Assembly (NCBI RefSeq): GCF_000328475.2
Contig: NC_026478.1
Location: 1,302,001-1,366,000, forward strand
Direction of reading: 5' to 3'
Origin: Mycosarcoma maydis
Taxonomy: Eukaryota; Basidiomycota; Ustilaginomycetes; Ustilaginales
Length of the DNA: 64,000 bases
The notes under the pieces are model-generated. The model was not told where the DNA came from and did not search any database. It saw only the letters and a list, made by a program, of their open reading frames with translations. Shown here in pieces: positions 7,796-58,951 of the stretch (positions are counted from its first letter, which is position 1; each line of letters starts with the position of its first letter). The position numbers and the translations under genes are program-made.

Positions 7796-8892
7796 ATGAC
7801 TTTGGCTGCAACACTTTGTTGCATGCAGTCTGTCCGAGCATACCATGTACTTCTAGTCCTGAGACTCATTTCGCTTATCTGCAGTGACGACTGCGCTCAA
7901 TCCTCCTTGACCTTGCGACTTTGCATACGGCAGCAACTGTCCCCACCTGCGAACTTCTAACGCACTGCTGTTGAAACACTTTATTGCACCTTTGAAACCA
8001 GGCTGAAGACATCCACGATTGTGACATTGGTAGCCAGATACCCAGATACAAAGCGGCTGTGATGCTTTCTAACGTACGATAAGCCAGACAAAGGTTCGGC
8101 TTTGCCCCGCAGTCAACCACGAATAGTTTCGAGGTGGGTAATAAAGTGCGGTCAGCTACTTTGCAGATGCGCTTTGAAGATGCCAAGGCTTCTTTCTAGG
8201 TTAGAGCGAGTGCCAACCTCGGCGGCTTGCAGGTGGAAGGTCAATGCAAGCATTTAATCTTATCGACCAGTGTAAGTACGGGCTCCTGCAATGAGGCTAC
8301 GAGACGGACATAGCCGGGTCACAGAGAACGTGCTCTTGATGGATGCGATAACGTGTCAACCCAATCGTGAATCGATCCTCAATCAGAAAAGAAAAGTCAG
8401 AGCTGTGCAAATTTGACTCACACTCGTGACTAGCTTCACCCGAGAACAAGCGCAGCGATGTGAATCGTGAATCACCAACGCAGCTGCTGCTGTGACTAAG
8501 TTGATTAACGAGGCTGGCGCACGTCTTGAGAGCCCATGAAAGGAAGCATCGTGGGTGATTCAAGTGAAATAACGGGGCAGTTGTCAGTCTTTAGTCATGA
8601 ATCCGTAGGTGGTGAGTGCTTCTTGCGCTTTGCACTTTTCACAAAGTCACAACTCGCTGTTCCGTGCACGGTGCAAAGTCACGAGTTCTCAGCGGCAGTG
8701 CATCTTTTCTCTGAGAATCCTGAATCATGTTGTCGGCTGACCCTGGTCGGTCCAAACCACGAGACGAGACACGAATTGTGAATTGGCTCTTGCTGAATCT
8801 ATTTCGACTGCTCAGTCGAATTGTCACGCGTCAGTTACGCATCTCCCTTTCCACCACCATCAGGTTGGTGCAGACCACCGACGAATACCATC
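7796..8892. other. Intergenic region with scattered heptamers
   Basis: The stretch is 1.1 kb between RRP42 and the PIL1-dehydratase gene, which lie in tandem. Several single heptamers occur (near 8362, 8416 and 8463). No ORF here has a recognisable product. The region presumably includes the RRP42 terminator and the promoter and leader of the next gene. Confidence 0.5.
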
Positions 8893-11800
8893 ATGGCTTC
8901 CTTCTTCCAAAAGGCCAGAGAAAGAGCCGAAGCCGCTGCTCAGCAGCTGCAGGCGCACCATGCCGCTTCCTCGGCTACCAAGATCAACGACACCTCAGCA
9001 TCAGCTAACGTCACCGCCTCCGGTGCCGGCTCAGCGTCCAGCTTCACCTATACAGGCTCCGTGCCTCACCTCTTCCGACAGGGCCTCGCTTCGGTCGACC
9101 CTCGCTACGAGTCGACGCGCCAGTTTCATCTGCTCAGCCAGGCTTTCAAAAGCTTCAACATCGACCACGAAGCCGCCGGTCGCGAAGCTAGGGGTCTTGC
9201 CAAAGCCACTTTCGTCTGGGGCCAGCACCACCTTCCCGAGAAGCGCGACGACAGTGTAGGAGACGAGATGCTCGCCGATGTTACCGACCGCCTGGCCTAC
9301 GTCTGGCACGAACTCGGTCAGCTCGAAACCGCGCACAGCCAACGGTCTGAACAGGCCCGCGGCCGTCTCAAGAGTTTTGAGAAGGCCGAGATGGAACTCG
9401 GACAGAGAAGAGCCCATCGCAGCAAGCTCAGAAAGGAACTCCACGCTCTCGTTCCCGAGCGCGCCATTGCAGCTGGCAGCTCTCGTGTTCAAGATCTCGA
9501 GACACGTCTTGAGCAACTCATCAACGACGACCAGGCCGACGAAGAGTACCTGAGCCGCACCAAGCGCCAGAGCGTCAAGGAGGGGTATGCTGCCATGTTT
9601 GACAGTCTGATCGAACTCGGCGAGAAGATGGCCCTCGTCGCACGCTACGGCAAGCTACTCACCACCTTGATGCCCATCGAAAAGTCGCCGTTCCCTGGTA
9701 CGGTCAAGCAACGCGGAGACAATATACCTTTGTGGGAGGGCGCATCTAAAACCGCTGATGTACGTGCAGCTCTCGCATCTGCTCTGTCGTCCTTCCGACC
9801 CGACCTCTCCTTGCCCATCCTGCCAGCGGACTCGGCTCTCGCGGCCACCAGCAGCCTGGGTCGCACAGACACAGTGTCATATGCAGTTTCTCACCAGTCA
9901 GAGCTCCAAGCAGATTATACCGCACCAGTAGTTTCACCCGCGGCAGCTCCACTCGCCCAGCTTTCTTCACCTCGTAGTCCTGGTCTTTCTCCCGATCGAA
10001 GCGACATGGTCCAGCTGGCCAACCCGACCTCACAGCATAGCGGTAGTGGATCAGCTCAGAAGCTCAATCTCAGTCCGTCAGCTCTGCCTGTTCCGTTGCT
10101 TCCGCCTCGTCCGCAGAGAAGCCCCTCCGCAACCACAGTAGACACATTGCGCTCACCCGCTGCCGATCCATTCGCTGACTCGGCTGCAGCCGCTGCCCCT
10201 AGTTCCAGCATTTCCGCAGCGCAAACCGAGGAAGCTCTCCCGCCCCCTGGCCCACCTGGTCCAACTGTTGCCGAGACAGGTGTGGTGCCCTCGGGACCCG
10301 GCGGACCCAAGTCAGGTACACTCCAACCACGTCGGTCCTCAGCGAGCCAGCGATCAGTGTCTATTTCGGCTGGTGCTGTCGCCTATCTAGGCCCGACTGG
10401 CACCTACAGCCACCAAGCGGCTCTCAAGGTTTTCGGCGCGACGGGCACCAACCTCATCCCTATGCAAAGTATCACCGGTGCCATCGACTTTGTTCGCCGC
10501 GGCACACCTGGTAACGCAAAGATCGCTATCGTTCCAATCGAGAACAGCACATTTGGGCCGGTTCGTGACACGCTTGACAACCTGCTCGGCATCAGCAACG
10601 GCGACCGTCATGCGTTCAAGCCTGCAGATGGAGCTCAACTGCATGTGGTAGGTGAAGCGTGCCTCTCTGTCGATCATGCCCTTTTGTGTGGACCCAAGAC
10701 CTACCACCATCTCCTTCAGCTACAAGGCGACACCGATCCGAACGCGCCCATTCGCGACGACACACTGTCCAACATCACCAACGTCATCTCACACGAGCAA
10801 GCGCTGGGACAGTGCTCGCACTACCTTACTCGTTACATGCCGCAGGCCAAGAAGCGGGCAGTCGAGTCCACCGCTGCAGCTGCCATCACGGCTTTGGAGT
10901 TCGAGGCGGGCACTGCACCCGGAAGAACATCCACGTCCATCGACCACGCACACGAATCGCTGGGTTTCTCATCAAACTCTTTGGTTGCTGCTGTAGGAGC
11001 TGAAGTAGCCGTCACCGCTGTCGGCGTCCGCGTGCTCCGCTCTCGTATTCAGGACGTTAAGGACAATCGCACACGCTTCTTGATATTGGCAAGCGAGCCA
11101 CTCGAAGCGCTGCTGAGCATCAACGCCCTGCCGTTGACCATCTCGCGTCTATACAGCGCGTCAAGCGCAGCCAGAAAGACAGGCCGATCGCTGCTGAGTG
11201 TCAGTGATACACTTGTCTCAGATCTGGCCGCAGAGGCTGACAACTATAGCAGCAGCGATAGCAGTGTACTTGACAGACTTGTGGCGCAGCTTGCCAAGTT
11301 GAACGATGTCTCTGTCCGCAAGCTAGATCGTCGAACAGCTTCAACGTCAGAAGCATTTGCCGCAAGTGGTAGCAGCGTGTGGCGTAGCAGCTATCTAGTG
11401 GAGCTGCAGTACGCTGGTGCTTCTGCCGCCGTTGCTGAAGACAAGATTCGCCGATTGGTTGCTGAGCTTTCGATCGGGAGCTCCGCGACGAGATTACTCG
11501 GAGACACTGCTCCTGTCAAGCATCTCGGTAGCTGGCTCGTTGATGCAACAATGCTGCGCGGCGAGTCCACAGACAATGCTGGCGGCCAAGCAGCACAGTC
11601 AGTGTTGACTGCAGGCCCGTCTGGCTCGCATCTCTCCCAAAGCACGTTACCTGGGTCTTTGCAACTGACCGAGAGGGAGCGAAAGGAGACGGAAGCTCGT
11701 CAGGAAGCGGCAGAAGTGCAACGACATGCAGCCCAGGCGCGGCTAAGCCGTCAGCAGCAACAAGCGGATCTGTACCGAGTTGAGGCGCAGCCGTCTGGCT

Positions 11801-11931
11801 CTTCGACCAGTGGTTCTCGCCTGACGTTGCCGCTAGCTGGACTGCAGGAGAGTGAAGCTGAGCCACGTTTGGACGAGGAAGAAGGACTGCCCGCGTATCA
11901 GCCACTCGACCCTGGATCGCGAAGCCGATGA
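8893..11931 (+). CDS. Fused PIL1/LSP1 eisosome BAR domain + prephenate dehydratase
   Basis: One uninterrupted frame of 1012 residues carries two unrelated modules. Residues about 45-270 match the Pil1/Lsp1 eisosome BAR family (TRQFHLLSQAFKSFNIDHEA, DVTDRLAYVWHELGQLE, FDSLIELGEKMALVARYGK), which scaffolds plasma-membrane furrows. A Pro/Ser/Ala-rich linker follows to about 490. Residues about 493-727 are a prephenate dehydratase domain with its hallmark motifs GPTGTYSHQAA, PIENSTFGPV, ESTAAAA and the TRF motif (NRTRFLIL); this enzyme makes phenylpyruvate for phenylalanine synthesis. A degenerate ACT-like region follows (to about 880), without a clear ESRP motif. The tail (ERERKETEARQEAAEVQRHAAQ, ending EEGLPAYQPLD) looks like the charged tail of a Pil1-type protein. 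Start is ATG 8893; upstream the frame is reached only through TTG. Internal splicing could separate the parts. Confidence 0.85.
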   Translation: MASFFQKARERAEAAAQQLQAHHAASSATKINDTSASANVTASGAGSASSFTYTGSVPHLFRQGLASVDPRYESTRQFHLLSQAFKSFNIDHEAAGREARGLAKATFVWGQHHLPEKRDDSVGDEMLADVTDRLAYVWHELGQLETAHSQRSEQARGRLKSFEKAEMELGQRRAHRSKLRKELHALVPERAIAAGSSRVQDLETRLEQLINDDQADEEYLSRTKRQSVKEGYAAMFDSLIELGEKMALVARYGKLLTTLMPIEKSPFPGTVKQRGDNIPLWEGASKTADVRAALASALSSFRPDLSLPILPADSALAATSSLGRTDTVSYAVSHQSELQADYTAPVVSPAAAPLAQLSSPRSPGLSPDRSDMVQLANPTSQHSGSGSAQKLNLSPSALPVPLLPPRPQRSPSATTVDTLRSPAADPFADSAAAAAPSSSISAAQTEEALPPPGPPGPTVAETGVVPSGPGGPKSGTLQPRRSSASQRSVSISAGAVAYLGPTGTYSHQAALKVFGATGTNLIPMQSITGAIDFVRRGTPGNAKIAIVPIENSTFGPVRDTLDNLLGISNGDRHAFKPADGAQLHVVGEACLSVDHALLCGPKTYHHLLQLQGDTDPNAPIRDDTLSNITNVISHEQALGQCSHYLTRYMPQAKKRAVESTAAAAITALEFEAGTAPGRTSTSIDHAHESLGFSSNSLVAAVGAEVAVTAVGVRVLRSRIQDVKDNRTRFLILASEPLEALLSINALPLTISRLYSASSAARKTGRSLLSVSDTLVSDLAAEADNYSSSDSSVLDRLVAQLAKLNDVSVRKLDRRTASTSEAFAASGSSVWRSSYLVELQYAGASAAVAEDKIRRLVAELSIGSSATRLLGDTAPVKHLGSWLVDATMLRGESTDNAGGQAAQSVLTAGPSGSHLSQSTLPGSLQLTERERKETEARQEAAEVQRHAAQARLSRQQQQADLYRVEAQPSGSSTSGSRLTLPLAGLQESEAEPRLDEEEGLPAYQPLDPGSRSR

Positions 11932-12982: not shown

Positions 12983-15811
12983 ATGCCACCTCGCTACCCA
13001 TTTGGAGGTGGGGCTCAGTCCGATGAAGCTCATCACCAGCCGTTGGAGAGGCGTACGACGGCAGAGGCGCAAGGTAACTCATTCACGCATGGCCACACCG
13101 CTTATCCAACGTATGACATGGGCGCAGAACCGCATTCACCACCTCACGTCTCTTATGATCCATACTTGCCTCCTTCCACATCAGGCGATCATTCGGGCTA
13201 CGAAATGCCTTCTGCCAACTACAACGACCATCATCGTTCTTCATACCCTCAGGCTATCCATAGCCCGCCTCGCATGACGAATCCCTACGCCAACTCGCAG
13301 CCTCGACAAGGCAGTGCGGATCCTTTCGATGAGCATGACGGTGATGTGCCCCTCTTGCCAAGAGGCGGCAACTATGCATATGCGCCCGCCTCGCACTTTG
13401 ACGAGCACGGCAACCATGTCGGCCCTGTCGACAAGTATGCCGATGGAGATGACGATGTGATGGACGAAGACGCTGTCAACGGCCAGGCGAGAGGCCGACT
13501 GCTCCACACGCAAGTTCCCCACGATGACGATTACATGCCCGGTGGCTTCGATCCCAACGTGCTCGAAAATGGCCAGGCTGGAGGTGTGCGCTTCGGCAAG
13601 ATCCCACAACGTGTGCCAAGACGATACAAGACGCTCAAGAGGGTTGAACTTTACCATGGCAACCTCGTCCTCGATTGTCCCGTCCCCTCCAAGCTGCTTG
13701 ACAAGCTCAACGACCGAGAGTCCCGAGAATTCACCCATATGCGATACACTGCTGCCACTTGCGACCCCGACGAGTTCAAAACCGAGCGTTACACATTGCG
13801 ACAGGTTCTCTTTGACCCTCCTCGTCGCACAGAGCTGTTTATAGTTCTCACCATGTATAACGAGGACGAAGAGCTTTTCACGCGCACCATGCACGGAGTC
13901 ATGACCAACATCGCCCATCTTTGTACTCGAGAGCGCTCCAAGACCTGGGGCAAGGAAGGCTGGAAGAAAGTCGTCGTCTGCATCGTCTCGGACGGCCGTC
14001 TCAAGATCAACTCGCGCACCTTGGCGTGCCTTGCTGCGATGGGAGTGTACCAGGAGGGCGTGGGCAAGAACGTCGTCAATGGCAAACCCGTCACTGCTCA
14101 CATCTACGAATACACAGCTCAGCTCTCGATCGATCCTAGCATGCACTTCAAGGGTCGCGAAAAGGGCATCATGCCCGTCCAAATTCTCTTCTGCCTCAAG
14201 GAGCGCAACCAGAAGAAGATCAACTCGCACCGTTGGTTCTTCAACGCTTTCGGCCAGATCTTGCAGCCCAACATCTGCGTACTGCTCGATGTAGGAACCA
14301 TGCCAAGACCTCGCTCCATTTACCATCTCTGGAAAGCCTTTGACATCAACTCCAACGTCGGCGGTGCCTGTGGTGAGATTGTCGCACTCAAGGGCAAATT
14401 TTGGGGCGCACTGCTCAATCCACTCGTCGCGGCGCAAAATTTCGAGTACAAGATGTCCAACATTCTCGACAAGCCGCTCGAGTCGGTCTTTGGCTACATC
14501 ACGGTGCTTCCAGGTGCCTTCTCCGCGTACCGCTACATTGCGTTACAAAACGATGCTCACGGTCAAGGGCCCTTGTGCTCGTACTTTAAGGGTGAAACAT
14601 TACACGGTGGCCAGTCGGACGCAGACGTCTTTACGTCGAACATGTATCTTGCCGAGGATCGCATCTTGTGTTGGGAGCTAGTGTCGAAGCGAGACAGCGC
14701 CTGGATCTTGCATTATGTCAAGTCTGCCCAAGCAGTCACGGATGTGCCCGACCAAGTTCCCGAACTGATCTCGCAACGCCGTCGTTGGCTTAACGGATCC
14801 TTCTTTGCCGGCATCCACTCGATCATCAAGTTTGGCTACATCTACCGCTCTTCGCATTCCTTCGGCCGCAAGTTCGCTCTGCACATCGAGATTATTTATC
14901 AGACGATCCAACTCATCTTTTCGTGGTTTGGTATGGCCAACTTCTTTATCGCCTTTTTCATTCTCACTAGTGCCATGAGCGACAAAATCCATGCGCTCAA
15001 GGTTCCTAATCTGGTCCTCTCCTACATCTATGTTGCCTTTATCATCTTCTGCTTCCTGCTTTCTATGGGTAATCGACCTGCGGGAAGTAAAGCTGGATAC
15101 ACGCTAGCTATGGTGGTGTTTGCGCTCCTAACGGTCTACATGACGGGCGCTGCAATCTACTTGGCGGTCGATTCGATTCTCAACGCCACCGGTCCCAATG
15201 GCGGTGGAACCGATGCGCTTGTTTCGAACCGTACGTTTGTCAACATTGTCATTTCGCTTGCGGCCACATTCGGTATCTGGTTGATCGCGAGTATCATGTT
15301 TCTCGAACCGATGCACATGGTCACTTCGATTGTTCAGTACCTGCTCATGGCTCCCACCTTCGTCAACGTGATCAGCATCTACGCCTTTGCCAACATCAAT
15401 GACATTTCGTGGGGAACGAAAGGATCGGATAAAGTCATGACGGATTTGGGAGTCGTCGGAGGCTCTGGCAACAACCAGGTCGAAGTTGCCATTCCGACCG
15501 AGTCCAAGGACATTAACGACGCTTATGACGATGCGATCCATGTTCTGAGCAACAAGGCGCCCAAAGCCGGGCCTGGCCCTGTCGATAAGGAACAGAAGCA
15601 GAAGGACTACTACGCTACTGTGCGTACCAATGTGGTACTCTGCTGGAGTTTGAGCAATGCCGCTCTCGTCGTGGGCATTCTGAATATCAGTTCGATTGGC
15701 ACAAGGACCATCTACATGGGATTCCTCTTGTATTCCGTCGCAGGCTTAGCGCTGTTCAGGATGATGGGTTCCACAATCTACCTGATTAAGCGGCTTTTCT
15801 CTGGAGAATAG
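12983..15811 (+). CDS. Chitin synthase, division 1 (class I-III type), first copy
   Basis: The 942-residue membrane enzyme polymerises UDP-GlcNAc into chitin at the plasma membrane. Residues 1-205 are a Pro/His/Tyr-rich cytoplasmic tail. The chitin synthase N-domain follows ([23 protein letters not shown]), then the catalytic region with [32 protein letters not shown] (near residue 555) and the signature [11 protein letters not shown] (near 599). Several transmembrane helices and a final hydrophobic pair complete the division-1 layout. U. maydis chs3 and chs4 are, as I recall, neighbours of this type, but I cannot assign the number. A second, similar enzyme lies 39 kb away at 55041-58130 on the other strand. 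Start ATG 12983 is the first in frame. Confidence 0.95.
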
Positions 15812-35934: not shown

Positions 35935-38900
35935 TCAATCGAGTCCGATGTCATCCGGAGCGACCCCCACGGGCAAATGGTCTGCATCCTGCAACGCCCA
36001 ACGCGGCCAAGTCAATTTCGACAAATCTTCCAACGCTCGAGTGCCCGAATGAACGTTCATGCTCAAAACATGGCCAGTGAGATACTCGGCCACCTCGTCT
36101 GACCACACGCGCGAGGCAGCTCGGATTTCCAACGGCAGCCTCGAGGGTAGCACAACTACGTGCACAGCAGGACGTGGCACCACGCTAGCAATGCTGGCTG
36201 CACAGGTTCGTTGCGTAGCTTGGAGATGTGAAGCCATCTCTTCGGCCGCCCGTATGGCGCACGCTAGTCGCAGTCGATCGCCTCGAGCATCTTTGCCTAC
36301 GATCACGAACAGCTCCCGGTCCCGAAGGTTCACAATCGAAATCTTGCTTGCCCGTGTGGGCAGTAGCAGGTCGTGGACCCCATAGTAGTTCCGCTCGCTG
36401 CAGCCAAGTAGACGGAGCTCTTGCTCTTGTAGCTCGACGTCGAGGAGGACGGAATCATCTGAAGTGGTCACATCACGATGACGGTGCAACCAAGCGCTGG
36501 CGTAGGCTTCCGTCTGGTCAAAGCTTTTCCAGAACACACTATCCTCCGACCCTTCCTCCAACTCGGACATGTCTTGAATTGAGTGTGAAACAGACCTGGC
36601 AAGCGCCTGAGCGTAGCGCACTGCAGCAGCTCGAACGGAGGAGGGCGAACCGCGTCCATGCCACACTCCTATTACAGGAACCGCGTACACAAAGCTGTCG
36701 CTTGAGCAAAAGCTCGAGGTTCGCAAATCGACCTGCTCGATTGTGAAGCTCTCCGGCTGATTCTTGGTCGAGGCGACAGCTCGACGGACGCGGTACAAAG
36801 CCGGCGCAGCGGCATCAAAGCGTTTGCGCGAGCCTTGACGGGTCAATGCCCAAGTTCCTGACAGCGCTGCGATCAGCTCGCCAGACTCGCACCCGGCAGG
36901 AACCACCTCCGGCTGGGTCGAGTATTTGTGCGCCAGTTCAGCCACTTTGCGACCCTCGATACATGACATGGATTGAGGGCCCAGCTCGAAGGGATGCAGA
37001 GCAGAGCAAAGTCCTGTTCGAATCCAAACCTTAGTTTCGGTGAGACCGCGTGCGGTCTTGAACTTATGGACGACGGCAAGCGTCTCGTCATCGTACAGGA
37101 TCTGTTCGCGCCGGAGTTGCTCGCCGCGTTGAAATGTCTGATCGCCAGATAGCTCCAACTGCTCGACAAATCCATCTGCGTCGATCGTAAGAACCTCAAG
37201 TGAGATTGTCTTTGCGAATTTTGGCGAAGAATCGGATATGGTGACGCTTGCAACCTGCTTCAAGGTTGCGCTTGCATTTCGAACAATTGATGTAGCTCTA
37301 GCAACCACATCGCCGTCCTGACGTTTGAGTTGCACCATGTCCGTTAGCAAACCTTTCTTCGGCCTTGTTGTGGCGACAGTCGCATTCTGCTTCTCGGCTT
37401 CTTGACGGTCAAGCTCCTCCAAGTGGCCTTTGAGCACGAGATCGGCTGCTTGTACAATGATAATGTGCTCAACTTTGTGAATGGCCTCCTCGAGCTGCTC
37501 CAAGTCGTACGTTGGGAGAATGGGCACCTCGCGCACAATGATGGGACGTCCGCGATCGACGTCCGCCACCACTTCATGCACCATGCATCCAGTCTTGTCG
37601 GTGAGACCCTGCTTGTACGCTTCAAAAGCACGTGGAATCGCATTGGCACCATCAAACGCCTTGGGTAGTGCGGGATGCAGATTGATGATTGGCACTGCTT
37701 TCAAAGGGCGCTGTCCGATTGTGGGTGTGGTAGCAGGCAAGCTCGTCTTGTGGCCTAGAGCGTGAAGGAAGGACTCCGAGACAATGTGCATGAACCCGGC
37801 CAACACAATGAGATCGGGAGGGGTCCCTTGGCCCTCAGCACTGTCTCCGTCGAGCACGGCTCGGGCGAGCACTCTGTCGTACTCCTCTCGAGTTCCGCCC
37901 GGGTTGTGATTCTGCCACGTCTTGAGCGCAAGCACCTTGGTGGGGATGGGTGGGTTCGACTCGGCGGCCCTCGTGAGGCCGTAGGCAGCTTTGCGGTTCG
38001 AAAGGACAAAGGTAATCTGTGCGTTGTCGATAACCGGAATGCCCGACGGAGGATCAAGCAGGGTAGCGTCGATCAAAGATTGCAAGTTGGAGCCAGATCC
38101 AGAGACTAGCACGTGGATGCGCTTACCTGTGGTCCTGCGGGTAGGTTTTTTTGATCCCGTGCTGGAGGGCTTGTCTGTCATCTGATTTGCACGTGTCTGC
38201 GTCGTCTGAGGGACATCTGTAGAAGTGGTGCTCGCGGATGAAGGAGCAACGTTGGCGTCTGCAGTCGCAGCCTTTCGGACGGGACCCCTGGCCCGCGCCT
38301 TGGTAAGAGATGACAGGACCTGATCCGAGTTTGAGGAAGCATTTGCGACAGAAGTCGAGTCGGGAAGGACGATGGCATCTTCCGTTCGAGATCTGTTCTC
38401 CGCGAAGCGAGCAAAAGGGCTGACACTGCCACCCATTCCAGGCAGTCGAATAGGTTCTGCTCGTGGTTCGGCCACCATGTCGGTCTTCTTTGCGGAGGGT
38501 GACTGCCAAGGGGTCAAGCCCGTCTCTTTGGTGGGCGAACGATTGGCGAGACCTGGGAGCGCATTGCCGTACTTGGTTGGCGACCAGGGAGAGTCGGTTT
38601 TGCGTTCTTCGTGGGCCAAGTGCACGGCAGCGGCGCTGGTCTGGATAGCTGGAGGCCATCGATCGCGGACGGCAGGACTAGATGGCACGCTTCGTCCAGG
38701 GGTGCCCACCTGCATCGAATCGCTTTCCTTTTGTGCGACGACATCACGCAACTGCGCCTCTTTGATGCGCTGGCCGACCATCTTCTTGGCGCTGAGTCGG
38801 GACAAGGAGGCGGTGGGCATGCGATCAGCACCTACCAGTTCGCTGTTGGCGAAGCTGTTGGATCGGCTAGAGACCTGCAAAGCGGGAGCAACAGCCTCTT

Positions 38901-40221
38901 CTGTAGATTGAGTCCAGGCTTTGCCAAGGTTGTGGTCAGTCTTATACTGTGCTGTTGTAGCTGTAACAGAAGCAGGGCCGCGAATGTCTTCGAGCTTGAA
39001 AGGACTAGTAGAGGCATCCTTTCGCTCGGGCGAACCGTGATAAGAATGTGTCTGTGATCCAGAGTTGGGGATGGCAAGTGGTCGAGATGTTCGCAACGGG
39101 TTGTCATTGGGTGTTGGGCTGGTGGCCACATGGACAGATGAAGATGGTCCGGATGCGCCTTTCACTGGAGAAGCTGGTCGATCAAGCAGTGGTGAGGTTG
39201 TGGAGCTGTCTGCTCCGGGAAATCTGTGGAACTTGGATGGGCTCGAGGCGCGAGGAATGGCGGGCGAAGTAGGGGTGCTAGTGGGAACAGAAGCGTTCTG
39301 CTTCTCAATGAGATCCAGATAGGCCTTTTTGGGCGACGGAGGCGCTGGCGAGGCGAAGGCCGATGCGCCGGTCGAATCGACGTTGCTGGACGGGCGACCT
39401 AGTTCAGCCGGAGTGAACAAGTACTTAGCTGGGCTGCTCGCCTTTCCAGGAGAGACGAGTTCCTTCACAGGCGATGCTGGAGAGCCGGCTGCAGGTCGAC
39501 GGTGACCCGTAGCTTCAGCTCGCTCCTCGAGGAAGCTGGCAAGGGAACGTCCCGAGTTGGGAGCCAGTCCAGGCAGTGGAACTCGACGACTTTCGTGAAT
39601 GAGTTCCGCCTCGGGAGGTGCGCTCTTGCCATCTCCTGATAGCTTGCCGAGGCGAGGCCCAGCTGCCCTTCCCCCCATAAAGTTGGCAAGAGAGACAGGC
39701 GAGTCACTTGGGCCTTTCGGTCCTGCCGCTACACCCGTGGGACCATATTGGCCTCCGTAGCGAGCCAGTAACGAATTGGCCCTCTTGATCCCAGTGACAC
39801 CCGAAGCCTTTGTCGGTGACGAGCCGAGCAGCGGGGACTGAGAGGAAGTGTCAGGAGGTGCCATGGTGCCAGTTTGATTGTTGTCAAACCTTGTCGACGA
39901 GGAGCTTTCCAAACTTGGCGTAGCGAGAGGCGAGTTCGGATTGGACGACGAGATTCCGCGGATGCCTGAAACGGACAGGCGATCTCTGCGTTGCTGTCGC
40001 TCGAGACGCTGTTTCTGGAACTCGAGCTCGAGCTCTGAGGCGGGAGACTCGGTCACGTCGTCGGATCGAGGGCTTGCTAGTGCAATACGAGACGAGGCGG
40101 ACGACGAGTTGCGTTGACGAACTTTGTTCACCCACGATGCAAGATCCTGCGTCGGCGTATCCGATGGATCTGTCTTCTGTTTCGGGAACGAATGCGTTGA
40201 TGATGGATGAGGAAAAGACAT
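35935..40221 (-). CDS. GAR formyltransferase (ADE8) embedded in a DUF4045/gelsolin-type protein
   Basis: One open frame encodes 1428 residues. Residues 1-690 are Ser/Pro-rich with a short charged start (DLASWVNKVRQRNSSS, then ELEFQKQRLERQQRRDR) as in fungal DUF4045 proteins. Residues about 700-930 are a complete phosphoribosylglycinamide formyltransferase: GSGSNLQSLIDA at the N-lobe, INLHPALPKAFDGA with the catalytic Asn and His, and TGCMVHEVVADVDRGRPI with the catalytic Asp. This enzyme makes formyl-GAR in purine synthesis. Residues about 1000-1428 return to the DUF4045/gelsolin type (ISLEVLTIDADG, ILYDDETLAVVHKFK, GTWALTRQGSRKRFD, a gelsolin-like repeat at FVYAVPVIGVWHGRGSP), expected to bind actin. 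The start ATG at 40221 is clear. An internal ATG at 38181 lies 19 codons before the enzyme core, and CAG/GTAAGC at 38126 resembles a 5' splice site. So separate products are possible. Confidence 0.85.
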   Translation of the reverse strand: MSFPHPSSTHSFPKQKTDPSDTPTQDLASWVNKVRQRNSSSASSRIALASPRSDDVTESPASELELEFQKQRLERQQRRDRLSVSGIRGISSSNPNSPLATPSLESSSSTRFDNNQTGTMAPPDTSSQSPLLGSSPTKASGVTGIKRANSLLARYGGQYGPTGVAAGPKGPSDSPVSLANFMGGRAAGPRLGKLSGDGKSAPPEAELIHESRRVPLPGLAPNSGRSLASFLEERAEATGHRRPAAGSPASPVKELVSPGKASSPAKYLFTPAELGRPSSNVDSTGASAFASPAPPSPKKAYLDLIEKQNASVPTSTPTSPAIPRASSPSKFHRFPGADSSTTSPLLDRPASPVKGASGPSSSVHVATSPTPNDNPLRTSRPLAIPNSGSQTHSYHGSPERKDASTSPFKLEDIRGPASVTATTAQYKTDHNLGKAWTQSTEEAVAPALQVSSRSNSFANSELVGADRMPTASLSRLSAKKMVGQRIKEAQLRDVVAQKESDSMQVGTPGRSVPSSPAVRDRWPPAIQTSAAAVHLAHEERKTDSPWSPTKYGNALPGLANRSPTKETGLTPWQSPSAKKTDMVAEPRAEPIRLPGMGGSVSPFARFAENRSRTEDAIVLPDSTSVANASSNSDQVLSSLTKARARGPVRKAATADANVAPSSASTTSTDVPQTTQTRANQMTDKPSSTGSKKPTRRTTGKRIHVLVSGSGSNLQSLIDATLLDPPSGIPVIDNAQITFVLSNRKAAYGLTRAAESNPPIPTKVLALKTWQNHNPGGTREEYDRVLARAVLDGDSAEGQGTPPDLIVLAGFMHIVSESFLHALGHKTSLPATTPTIGQRPLKAVPIINLHPALPKAFDGANAIPRAFEAYKQGLTDKTGCMVHEVVADVDRGRPIIVREVPILPTYDLEQLEEAIHKVEHIIIVQAADLVLKGHLEELDRQEAEKQNATVATTRPKKGLLTDMVQLKRQDGDVVARATSIVRNASATLKQVASVTISDSSPKFAKTISLEVLTIDADGFVEQLELSGDQTFQRGEQLRREQILYDDETLAVVHKFKTARGLTETKVWIRTGLCSALHPFELGPQSMSCIEGRKVAELAHKYSTQPEVVPAGCESGELIAALSGTWALTRQGSRKRFDAAAPALYRVRRAVASTKNQPESFTIEQVDLRTSSFCSSDSFVYAVPVIGVWHGRGSPSSVRAAAVRYAQALARSVSHSIQDMSELEEGSEDSVFWKSFDQTEAYASAWLHRHRDVTTSDDSVLLDVELQEQELRLLGCSERNYYGVHDLLLPTRASKISIVNLRDRELFVIVGKDARGDRLRLACAIRAAEEMASHLQATQRTCAASIASVVPRPAVHVVVLPSRLPLEIRAASRVWSDEVAEYLTGHVLSMNVHSGTRALEDLSKLTWPRWALQDADHLPVGVAPDDIGLD
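38121..38130 (-). promoter_or_regulatory. Possible 5' splice site at the start of the embedded ADE8 domain
   Basis: The minus strand reads ACAGGTAAGC, a near-ideal donor, exactly where the formyltransferase domain begins. Phase-1 AG acceptors that keep the frame occur after the domain (for example exon resumption at 37352 or 37175). This is a sequence match only; use in vivo is inferred. Confidence 0.3.
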
Positions 40222-55040: not shown

Positions 55041-58000
55041 TCAACCGTTGATCAAGCGGATGGTGAGGTAAAGGGTGCTGCCGATGAAACGGATGCACGC
55101 CATTCCAGCGACGAAGATCAAGACGAGGACCATGTACACCTTGGTCCTTGTGACGCCGCCTGTATCGCTGAACGTGCCGGCGGCATCGCCATTCAAGATG
55201 AACGCGGCCAAGACACCGTTACTGAGCGCCCAGGCGAGGACGACGTTGGTTCTGATGTTTTTGTAGTAGTCCATCTGACGAGCTTCCTTTTCGGCGTTGC
55301 TGGCGTCACCACGGATGATCATCGGTCTGGTCCTCAAGTTGTTGAGTGCATCGTCGTATGCTGTATCGATGTCGGCTTGAGCTGTAGGCAGCGTGATCTC
55401 GACGGTTCCTTTCGATGTGGATACCACGGCGCCCAAATCGGCGCTAATCGAGGTGTCGCCTTTGGTGCCCCAGGAGAAGTCGTGCAAGTTGCAAAACGCG
55501 TAGATGTTGAGGATGTTGATGTAGGTCGGTGCAAGCAGAAGGTACTGGAGGAACGACGTGATCAGGTGCAAAGGATCGCACGCGAGAAGCGACGAGATCA
55601 GATACACTCCGTACGTGGCCAGAAGCGAGACCACCATCTGAGCATAGATGGCATCGTGTTCTACTCGAGCGACGACCTTGCTCAAACACAAGACGGCGGC
55701 AACCATCATGTACACGGTAAGCAGAGCAAACACGACGACGGCAGCCCAGTACTTCCACTTGCTTCCCTGCGGTCGGTTACCCATCGCGAAGATGAAGCTC
55801 GATACCACAGTACCGAGATAGATGTACTGCATAAACACATTGAATACGCCAATGCCGCGGAGCTTGAACGTCGGGTCTTCCAAAGACGTGGTGAGGATCC
55901 GGAAGAAAATGTAGTAGTTGGCCAATCCGAACCATGCAAAACACATGTTGACAAAGCTGTAGAAGCTTTCGAACACAAGCAGCGACTTTCGCCAAACATT
56001 GTGTCCGGAACGCACGAATTGCGCCGTGTGGTAGAGCGCGTAGACGGCGGCGAAGAAGGATCCGTTTAACCAACGACGTCGCTGACTGATGAATTCGGGG
56101 AGTCCCTCGGGAACATCGGTCACTCCACGAGCTGATTTCACGTACTTCAACACCCATCCATGCCCACGTTTCGCCGCCAACTCGAAGCACAAGATTCGAT
56201 CTTCGGCGAGGTACATGTTGGATGTGAAGACGTCAGCGTCAGCTCCCAACAGGTTTTCGCCTTTGAAGTAGGAAGCCAGAGGTCCATGGCCAAATTCGTC
56301 GTTCTGCAGCGCGATGTAGCGGTAAGCGGAGAATGCACCGGGAAGCACCGAGATGTATCCCATGACACTCTCGGTAGTCTTGTCGAGGATGTTGCTGATC
56401 TTGTACTCAAAGTTCTGCGCTGCTACGAGTGGATTTAGGAGCAAAGGTCCCACTCCCCATTTGCCTTTGGTCTCGGCGCAGATCTCTCCACATGCGCCGG
56501 CAACGTTCGAGTTGAGATCAAACGATTTCCACAGGTAGTAAATCGACTTGTTCTCCGGTCGTGTACCTACGTCCAACAAGATGGTGACGTTGGGTTGCAG
56601 GATAGGGCAGAACGCGTTGAAGAACCATCGATGCGAATTGATCTTTTTCGCGTTCTTCTCCTTCAAGCAGAAGATGATCTGCATTGGAACCAGCCCTCTT
56701 TCGGCGCCTTTGAACTGCAGGTTGGAATCGATCGAAAGTTGGGTCGTGTATTCGTAAAGATGCGCACGTACTTCTTTGCCATCGACCATGTTTTTCGCCA
56801 CTCCGTCTTGGTAAACTCCTAGTGCGGCGAGGCAGTCGAGCACTCTAGGGTGAATCTTCTTGCGCCCGTCCGAGATGATGGCGACCACCACTTTTTTCCA
56901 GCCATCTTTGCCCCATGTGCGTGACTTGTTGCGCGAACAGAGGTGCGCAATGTTTTTCATGACGCCGTGGAAAGTTCGACAGAAAAGCACCTCGTCTTCG
57001 TTGTACATGGTGATGGCGATGAAGAGTTCCGTGTGTCGACCGTACAGCGCTGGTCGAAGCGTGAAGGATTCGCTCGCGAAATCGTCCGGATCGCAGGTGA
57101 CGGCCGAATAACGCATCGTGGTGAATTCGTCTTCGGCTCGTCGCGTGAGGAACGTCTGCAACTTGGTCGGCACGGGGCAATCCAGAATGAGGTTACCTTT
57201 GGTGAGGCGTACGTTCTTCTTGGTCTTGTGCCTACGAAGCTGAGCACCGCGTGCTGGAGCGGGACCAAAGTGTTGCGTGTCAAAGTGGTTATCGCCAAAC
57301 TGACCGGTAGGTCCAGCCATACCGGCGCCACCATAGGCAGAGTTTGGGTCATAGCCTTGGCCGTTGTCGCCTCCGAAAGCAGAATCACGCGTCAAGACTC
57401 GGTATGGATCTTCGGCGTCCTCATCCTCGTCGTCGTCATCGTTGCGTGCAACTTGAGCATATGGGCTCTGCAAGTACGCGATACCAGCTGCTCTTCCAAA
57501 GGGAGAAGTTCCGGCTGCCGCTGAATCCGGACGATCATATGCATACTTTTCATCATGCGCCGAGCTAGGCGAGTATTTTGTCTCGGCATCGTCGTCGTCT
57601 TCATCGTCTTGGCCATGGCGGTGAGCTAGCGATGAGTAGTGTCCAGCGGCGCTCTGGCTGTAGTATGTATATTCTCCATCGACGGAGCCTGACAGGGGAG
57701 CCTGGGAGTGCTCGGGTAGCGTGGCAAGGTGAGCTGATGGGCTTAAAGCGCCTGCCGCGGGCGGTGGGCTAGCGAGCGCATACGCTGCTTGACTGTAAAA
57801 GCTCTCGCTGAGCCCAGGCATGCGAGACTGCTGCCCATCTCTCGGATCCACGCTGATGCTCATGTGTTGCTGCTGCGGTGCATGAGCAGACACTTGCTGA
57901 TGCGAGAGGGGCAGAATGGATGCCGGCGAGGCAGATGCAGCATGCGCATCCGAGAAGGGAGACGTATGAGACGCCGAAGATGCTGCGCCGGATGCTTCGT

Positions 58001-58130
58001 ATGGGTTGACAAACGATGTGTTGGCACCACTGCCGACAATCAGGTCGGGATCTGGATAGTATGGATATGGGTCTTGATCGTCCTGTGCGCGAGCCGCGCC
58101 GGCCGAAGCCGGTCTCGAATAATAGGCCAT
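55041..58130 (-). CDS. Chitin synthase, division 1 (class I-III type), second copy
   Basis: The 1029-residue enzyme starts [16 protein letters not shown] and has an N-terminal tail of about 300 residues rich in Ser/Ala/His/Asp. The chitin synthase N-domain follows ([20 protein letters not shown]), then the catalytic core: [48 protein letters not shown] (near residue 642) and [11 protein letters not shown] (near 683). Multiple transmembrane helices and the end LTIRLING complete it. It shares long identical blocks with the copy at 12983-15811 (for example FFNAFG/C..LQPN and [12 protein letters not shown]). But the N-terminal tail is unrelated and about 90 residues longer. The start is the first ATG; seven upstream codons lack one. 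It makes chitin at the plasma membrane. Confidence 0.95.
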
Positions 58131-58951
58131 GTTGCGTTTGGCGATCAACACAAGAATACAGGCGACGGATGTTCAGCTACGGGAGAGATGAATGTGGTGA
58201 TGGTAAGAAAGACGACGGGTCGTCTCGCCACGAGCAATATTCGTAAGAAAGGGAGAAAAGAGAAAGCAAGAGAGAGCAAGTAGGATACAGATGATAGAGA
58301 AGCGTCAAGGAGGAACCAGGCAAGAGGAGTGTGCAAAGTGAAAGCGACGGCGACTCAAGCAGAGCGAGCTGGCATCAAGAGGTGTGAGCGTGGATGCCGC
58401 CGAAACCAAAGACAAGGCGTAAAGGGGGTCGAGGGGTAAGCAAGGATATGTAGAAGCTCGCACAGCCAAGCGTCATGCGTGATGGCCTTCTTGATCGCAG
58501 ATCCAACATGTTGCGCTCTGCTTGACAGGAGGCTCTAGTCGTAAGATGTAAGTCGATAGAAGCGAGGTGTTGGTTTCTCTCTTTCTCTCATTTTCCTGCG
58601 CCTCCGCCATACGCTGCGCCATTTTGCAGAATTAAATTGAAATTTCTCCGGCGTTGACGCTCATCGTAGCGCAGCACCAGTGTGTAGACAATTCACCACC
58701 CATAACCCCCTTACTGTATTTGTGACTAACATGTACATTCATGATTTACGATTAACAAGTCAGCCCGTGTTGAATGACACTTCTACTCCTGTCCAATCGT
58801 GAATCCAGATATGTCCGACACAACTCGTTTGCGACGCTTGTGCTTGCACATTGTGCTGTTGCCGATGAAACACCGCCAGCGATGAGATTGCAGCTCGAAA
58901 TGACGCCTGGAGGTACGTAGTCGGGGGGATGCATGAGACAAGTAGCTTCGC

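What the first reader, a model, noticed from the sequence alone, without database searches (positions are those of the whole stretch)
35935..40221. ADE8 GAR formyltransferase nested inside a DUF4045/gelsolin-type protein
The purine enzyme domain (about residues 700-930) carries its catalytic Asn, His and Asp. It sits between a DUF4045-like N-terminus and a gelsolin-type C-terminus that match one known fungal protein type in which no enzyme is present. A near-ideal 5' splice site lies exactly at the domain border (38126) and an internal ATG (38181) lies just before it, so the locus may encode a scaffold protein, an enzyme, and a joint product.
Basis: partly seen in the sequence, partly recalled or inferred. 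Interest (0 to 1): 0.88.

Follow-up and report, generated by a model that had tools for sequence, protein, structure and literature searches.

The report
Purine enzyme inside an actin-type scaffold
In this smut fungus the only gene found for an essential purine-making enzyme (GAR transformylase) lies in the middle of a long protein whose end is predicted to fold like the actin-binding protein gelsolin, and related fungi carry the same arrangement, so a housekeeping enzyme seems to be permanently attached to a cytoskeleton-type protein.

The parts
35935..40221 (-). Single open reading frame, 1428 aa: N-terminal scaffold part, GAR transformylase, gelsolin module
   Evidence: identical protein P0001 listed from another source, cluster of 21 sequences on 2 contigs
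38152..40221 (-). N-terminal part, aa 1-690: low-complexity sequence with conserved short motifs (LLARYGGQYGPTG, SLANFMGGRAAGPRLGK, SLASFLEER, PTASLSRLSAKKMVGQRI, three LPG[LM], LTKARARGP); some recur in Agaricomycete homologues without the enzyme
   Evidence: no Pfam domain there; no paralogue in the genome
37420..38124 (-). GAR transformylase (PurN/ADE8) domain, aa 700-934
37681..37683 (-). Asn847 codon (catalytic, role recalled)
   Evidence: 29 of 29 fused proteins
37675..37677 (-). His849 codon (catalytic, role recalled)
   Evidence: 29 of 29 fused proteins
37555..37557 (-). Asp889 codon (catalytic, role recalled)
   Evidence: 29 of 29 fused proteins
36082..37224 (-). Three gelsolin-like repeats, about aa 1000-1380 (DUF7904 sub-threshold at aa 1037-1123)
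38122..38126 (-). GTAAG at the enzyme's N-terminal border, the only GTRAG in the frame; probably not a used splice donor
37318..37347 (-). CTAAC (37347-37343) and CAG (37320-37318): possible acceptor after the enzyme; out of frame with 38126, branch site not conserved
38179..38181 (-). In-frame internal ATG (Met681), not conserved

Best explanation
The gene makes one fused protein. An ancestral scaffold without the enzyme (short-motif N-terminal part plus gelsolin-type C-terminus, still found in Agaricomycetes) received the ADE8 coding region in its low-complexity middle, once, early in Ustilaginomycotina; the separate ADE8 was lost, and the fused domain supplies the third step of purine synthesis. 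Shown: one open frame, an intact catalytic triad, no other GAR transformylase found in this genome, a gelsolin fold in the model, the same order across two classes, and fused enzyme domains on one side of a well-supported branch. Inferred: that the cell makes the full-length protein, that the enzyme is active, and that the gelsolin module still binds actin or an actin-linked partner and so places the enzyme at the cytoskeleton.
For: Single frame. PurN match and PDB GART match. The genome search finds three formyltransferase loci: this one, one that passes the PurU deformylase cut-off (304.8 against 285.95 bits) and one whose best family is Met-tRNA formyltransferase (142.3 bits, below its 201.5 cut-off). 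PurT: best 124.9 bits against 502.15. PurD lies in a separate 904-aa frame. 29 of 32 proteins are fused; triad 29 of 29; three parts 25 of 29. In six of the 13 relatives compared, both linkers are at 11-28% identity with 5-174 gapped positions and the frame runs on. 25 fused domains plus three short models form one group, support 100/98, in a tree of 52 rows. Cantharellus anzutake has a stand-alone enzyme (P0122) and an enzyme-free homologue (P0153). Gelsolin fold. No paralogue of either flank.
Against: No transcript, protein or activity data were available. Open linkers in relatives rest on deposited or predicted proteins, not on DNA; some models may have been spliced to fit. P0016 ends just after the enzyme and P0021 is cut short in the gelsolin part, real or model error. 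P0034 (Ceraceosorus guamensis, 'partial', 248 aa) lacks the N-terminal motifs, and three further short models without the gelsolin part exist (P0033, P0035, P0090). The pair of acids expected in a calcium site of repeat 2 (site recalled) is not kept together in any row, so calcium-controlled severing is not implied.
Confidence: 0.8

Rival explanations
1. The locus makes several products by alternative splicing at 38126 and/or an internal start at 38181: scaffold without enzyme, enzyme alone, and the fusion.
For: The only GTRAG in 4287 nt sits at the enzyme border with consensus CAG|GTAAG, and the first CTRAY word downstream, a CTAAC, lies just after the enzyme. Smuts do splice alternatively: about 11% of U. 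maydis genes (PMC5414199, passages only). A distant frame-keeping acceptor exists at 36858-36867.
Against: AGGTRAG once against 0.22 expected in codon shuffles; five copies in the window against 2.65 expected. The 809-nt splice is out of frame and gives 704 aa without gelsolin. Branch-site residues in 3 of 29, Met681 in 1 of 29, 19 preceding ATGs.
Confidence: 0.1
2. The fusion is translated but the gelsolin and N-terminal parts no longer act on actin; the joint is a frozen accident that gives co-expression only.
For: The flanks evolve faster than the enzyme: identity 0.33-0.76 (N part), 0.29-0.74 (gelsolin part), 0.55-0.94 (enzyme) over 13 of the 28 other fused proteins. The acidic pair of a calcium site (recalled) is not kept in repeat 2.
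Against: The gelsolin fold is predicted and several short motifs persist across classes, and the flanks are aligned in 25 of 29, so they seem to be under selection for something.
Confidence: 0.35
3. Assembly or annotation artefact.
For: Four of the 29 fused proteins do not align over all three parts by the thresholds used; P0016 stops after the enzyme and P0018 is filed under a plant.
Against: The same protein is listed from another source and fused relatives come from many records; single frame in the window.
Confidence: 0.01

Closest known systems
Stand-alone fungal ADE8 (phosphoribosylglycinamide formyltransferase, about 220-320 aa)
   Same: Same enzyme family and fungal-type INLHPALPxAFDG motif
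   Different: Here it is an inner domain of a 1428-aa protein, not a separate gene
Animal GART (GARS-AIRS-GART trifunctional protein; architecture recalled, named)
   Same: GAR transformylase as a domain of a larger protein
   Different: The animal fusion joins enzymes of one pathway; here the partner is a gelsolin-type protein and PurD is in another frame
DUF7904/gelsolin-type proteins of Agaricomycetes without the enzyme (P0030-P0032, P0153)
   Same: N-terminal motifs such as SLAxFIGGRAxGPRL and TKxRAxKP, and a homologous C-terminal part
   Different: No formyltransferase domain
Gelsolin/villin family (G4-G6 half)
   Different: Only three repeats, preceded by an enzyme; by sequence alone the PDB gives only 2DGel3 chains at E 0.089 and 1.2, below unrelated ribosomal chains at 0.037

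Membership tests
PurN / GAR transformylase | Profile match to TIGR00639 over its length, above its cut-off | tested here: met
   aa 700-933, positions 1-188 of 192, E 5.9e-42; 143.4 bits alone against cut-off 150.1, 151 with neighbouring pieces, counted as over the cut-off by the genome search
PurN / GAR transformylase | Catalytic Asn-His-Asp (recalled) | tested here: met
   N847 H849 D889, 29 of 29 fused proteins
PurN / GAR transformylase | Fold of GAR transformylase | tested here: met
PurN / GAR transformylase | Enzyme activity | not testable with these tools
   needs complementation or an assay
Gelsolin superfamily | Gelsolin repeats | tested here: met
Gelsolin superfamily | Acidic pair of a calcium site (recalled) | tested here: inconclusive
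   Repeat 2 only: 12 of 25 rows keep the Asp, 9 others keep the Glu, none both; other sites not examined
Gelsolin superfamily | Actin binding | not testable with these tools
   needs co-sedimentation or imaging
DUF4045 | Pfam match in the N-terminal part | tested here: inconclusive
   No hit at E<=10 in this protein or at E<=1 in 7 relatives; no positive control was run
DUF7904 (PF25480) | Pfam match above the curated cut-off | tested here: inconclusive
   23.6 bits here against cut-off 30; 43, 37.6 and 31.4 bits in fused relatives P0022, P0025, P0026

The most novel reading that the evidence does not exclude
In a whole fungal subphylum, de novo purine supply passes through an enzyme built into an actin-binding protein, so that purine synthesis is physically placed at, or reports on, the actin cytoskeleton; by contrast a purinosome marker in animal cells was found along microtubules and not actin (PMC10912719, passages only). 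The Pil1-prephenate dehydratase frame nearby in the same window hints at a wider habit of joining biosynthetic enzymes to cortical scaffolds.
Probability: 0.3. Interest if true: 0.82.

Novelty: new variant of a known kind. Interest (0 to 1): 0.6.

Why it matters
A core metabolic enzyme, with no second copy found in this genome, sits inside a gelsolin-type protein in two classes of fungi. It is a natural, genetically simple test of whether attaching a purine enzyme to the cytoskeleton matters: removing the flanks while keeping the enzyme, or the reverse, separates the two roles. Public records already name several of these proteins as GAR transformylases, but no paper on the combined architecture turned up in the listings of the searches made, which cover open-licence papers only.

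Tried and rejected
Alternative splicing and internal start: examined and judged unlikely, not excluded. DUF4045 label: not recovered. Second ADE8 or PurT: none found. Paralogue of the flanks in the same genome: none at E<=1; the DUF7904 profile search rang nowhere, this locus and its controls included, so it is uninformative. The three PF00626 loci elsewhere were not followed. A sequence-only PDB search with the gelsolin part found nothing convincing, so that fold rests on the model.

Rows dropped and limits: the tree used 25 of 29 fused rows (P0003, P0014, P0015, P0018 left out as near copies or chimera), 24 of the 120 listed of 1095 hits from the enzyme-only search, and three short models. 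Linker identities were computed for 13 of the 28 other fused proteins. Alignment A2 used 25 sequences. The whole-protein search admits only proteins of 0.55-1.75 times the query's length, so it cannot show short separate enzymes; the enzyme-only search likewise cannot show full-length fusions.

Full report
The window lies in a 19.66-Mb genome of 27 contigs, on a contig of 2,476,501 bases. The size and the closest named relatives (Pseudozyma hubeiensis 76%, Sporisorium reilianum 74%) fit Ustilago maydis chromosome 1.

The only GAR transformylase found. A genome search with PF00551 rang at three loci (TIGR00639). The second (contig 1, 607 kb) passes the cut-off of the formyltetrahydrofolate deformylase PurU (304.8 against 285.95 bits) and fails PurN's (112.9 against 150.1). 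The third (contig 17) matches Met-tRNA formyltransferase best, at 142.3 bits, below that family's cut-off of 201.5, and PurN only at 27.2 bits. Formate-dependent PurT did not reach its cut-off. PurD is in another 904-aa frame. The search ignores introns and the assembly may lack pieces.

Relatives. A search with the whole protein listed 32 proteins, the same protein (P0001) among them; 29 carry the enzyme and three, from Trametes, Lentinus and Daedaleopsis, do not. The triad is kept in 29 of 29. By the thresholds used (alignment over more than 30% of aa 150-647, 60% of 700-934 and 60% of 1012-1428), 25 of 29 have all three parts. The four others are P0016 (ends after the enzyme), P0018 (filed under chicory, broken), P0021 (C-terminal model cut short) and P0028 (N-terminal part just under the threshold at 29%, gelsolin part present). 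Named carriers lie in Ustilaginomycetes (Sporisorium; Thecaphora) and Exobasidiomycetes (Tilletiaria, Microstroma, Tilletia). P0028 and P0035 are unnamed; Malassezia is a guess. The enzyme-only search gave 1095 hits, 120 listed, of lengths set by the tool to about 140-450 aa. Among the listed, the only named Ustilaginomycotina record is P0034 of Ceraceosorus guamensis (partial; class). Unnamed P0033, P0035 and P0090 are short models that begin with fused-type N-terminal or linker sequence. Most other named rows are Agaricomycotina by name (recalled, except Cantharellus), plus Bartheletia. Cantharellus anzutake has both a 226-aa enzyme (P0122) and an enzyme-free homologue of the scaffold (P0153). 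In a tree of 52 rows, 25 fused domains and three short models lie together on one side of a branch with support 100/98; the short models sit among the fused ones, so the fused label alone is not one clade; the root is at the midpoint, for drawing only. One fusion followed by vertical descent is the simplest reading. P0034 inside that group may be a loss or a split model.

One protein or several. Identity to this protein in the linkers falls to 13-28% (first) and 11-25% (second) in five distant relatives of the 13 compared (P0020, P0022, P0025, P0027, P0028), with up to 174 gapped positions, while the enzyme keeps 55-83%. A base-shuffled linker of this gene stays open in 18% (first) and 1.8% (second) of trials. 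Linkers that change this much and yet stay in frame are expected mainly if ribosomes read through them. The caveat is that the relatives were seen as proteins, not DNA. The donor at 38126 is real as sequence and is the only GTRAG in the frame. However, AGGTRAG is expected 0.22 times under synonymous shuffles, and five AGGTAAG exist in the window against 2.65 expected. The acceptor just after the enzyme gives an 809-nt intron (38126-37318), a frameshift and a 704-aa product. A frame-keeping but weak option lies further on (acceptors ending 36867 and 36858), which would take out much of the first gelsolin repeat as well. The needed Leu-Thr is in 3 of 29 proteins, in a region where the alignment is loose, and Lys700 is replaced in 3 of 29. 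Met681 occurs in 1 of 29. So splicing and internal starts remain possible in this species, but nothing shows them to be a conserved property.

How it may work. The enzyme would transfer the formyl group in purine step three while the flanks give the protein an address. The gelsolin fold suggests actin or an actin-linked partner. Passages of a review say that a purinosome marker followed microtubules and not actin (PMC10912719), and passages of another say that gelsolin takes part in actin remodelling in the rice blast fungus (PMC10952683). The acidic pair of a calcium site (recalled) is not kept in repeat 2, so classical calcium-controlled severing is not claimed.

Literature. Full-text searches for DUF4045, for Ustilago maydis with gelsolin, with glycinamide ribonucleotide transformylase and with phosphoribosylglycinamide formyltransferase, for gelsolin with gene fusion and purine, for fungal gelsolin/villin, for Ustilaginomycotina with glycinamide, and a six-term mix showed no paper on this architecture in their listings. 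Two further searches served background (alternative splicing in Ustilago; purinosome with actin and GART). Of the papers, I saw passages of PMC5414199, PMC10952683, PMC10969196 and PMC10912719 and listings only of the rest. Most subscription papers are not in that library.

Verdict. A genuine, conserved, lineage-specific domain fusion of an essential enzyme with a gelsolin-type scaffold. The fusion is well supported, the actin role is inferred, and the several-products idea is weak.

Noticed in passing
window 8821-11931 (+): A second enzyme-plus-scaffold frame: eisosome protein Pil1 (PF13805, aa 54-328, E 2e-69) and prephenate dehydratase (PF00800, aa 520-759, E 2e-45) in one 1036-aa frame. 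It is the only prephenate dehydratase match in the genome search. Its relatives were not searched beyond plasmid records, which matched only the enzyme part in the 20 of 24 rows listed.
   Followed up: partly
window 12983-15811 (+) and 55041-58151 (-): Two chitin synthase genes about 40 kb apart.
   Followed up: no
P0016 (Sporisorium graminicola): The gene model ends right after the enzyme domain, without the gelsolin part, unlike its close relatives: real loss, frameshift or model error.
   Followed up: no
window 35935-40221 (-): Branch-site-like CTRAY words are depleted in this frame: 5 seen against 16.2 expected in synonymous shuffles, none of 500 as low. In 10 of the 11 other long frames of the window tested the count also lies below expectation, mostly by little.
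   Followed up: partly
gelsolin repeat 2, aa 1173-1201: In alignment A2, 12 of 25 rows (this protein and the Ustilaginales-like ones) have Asp in the SxDSF loop but no Glu in the next helix; 9 others have the Glu but no Asp; 4 have neither.
   Followed up: no
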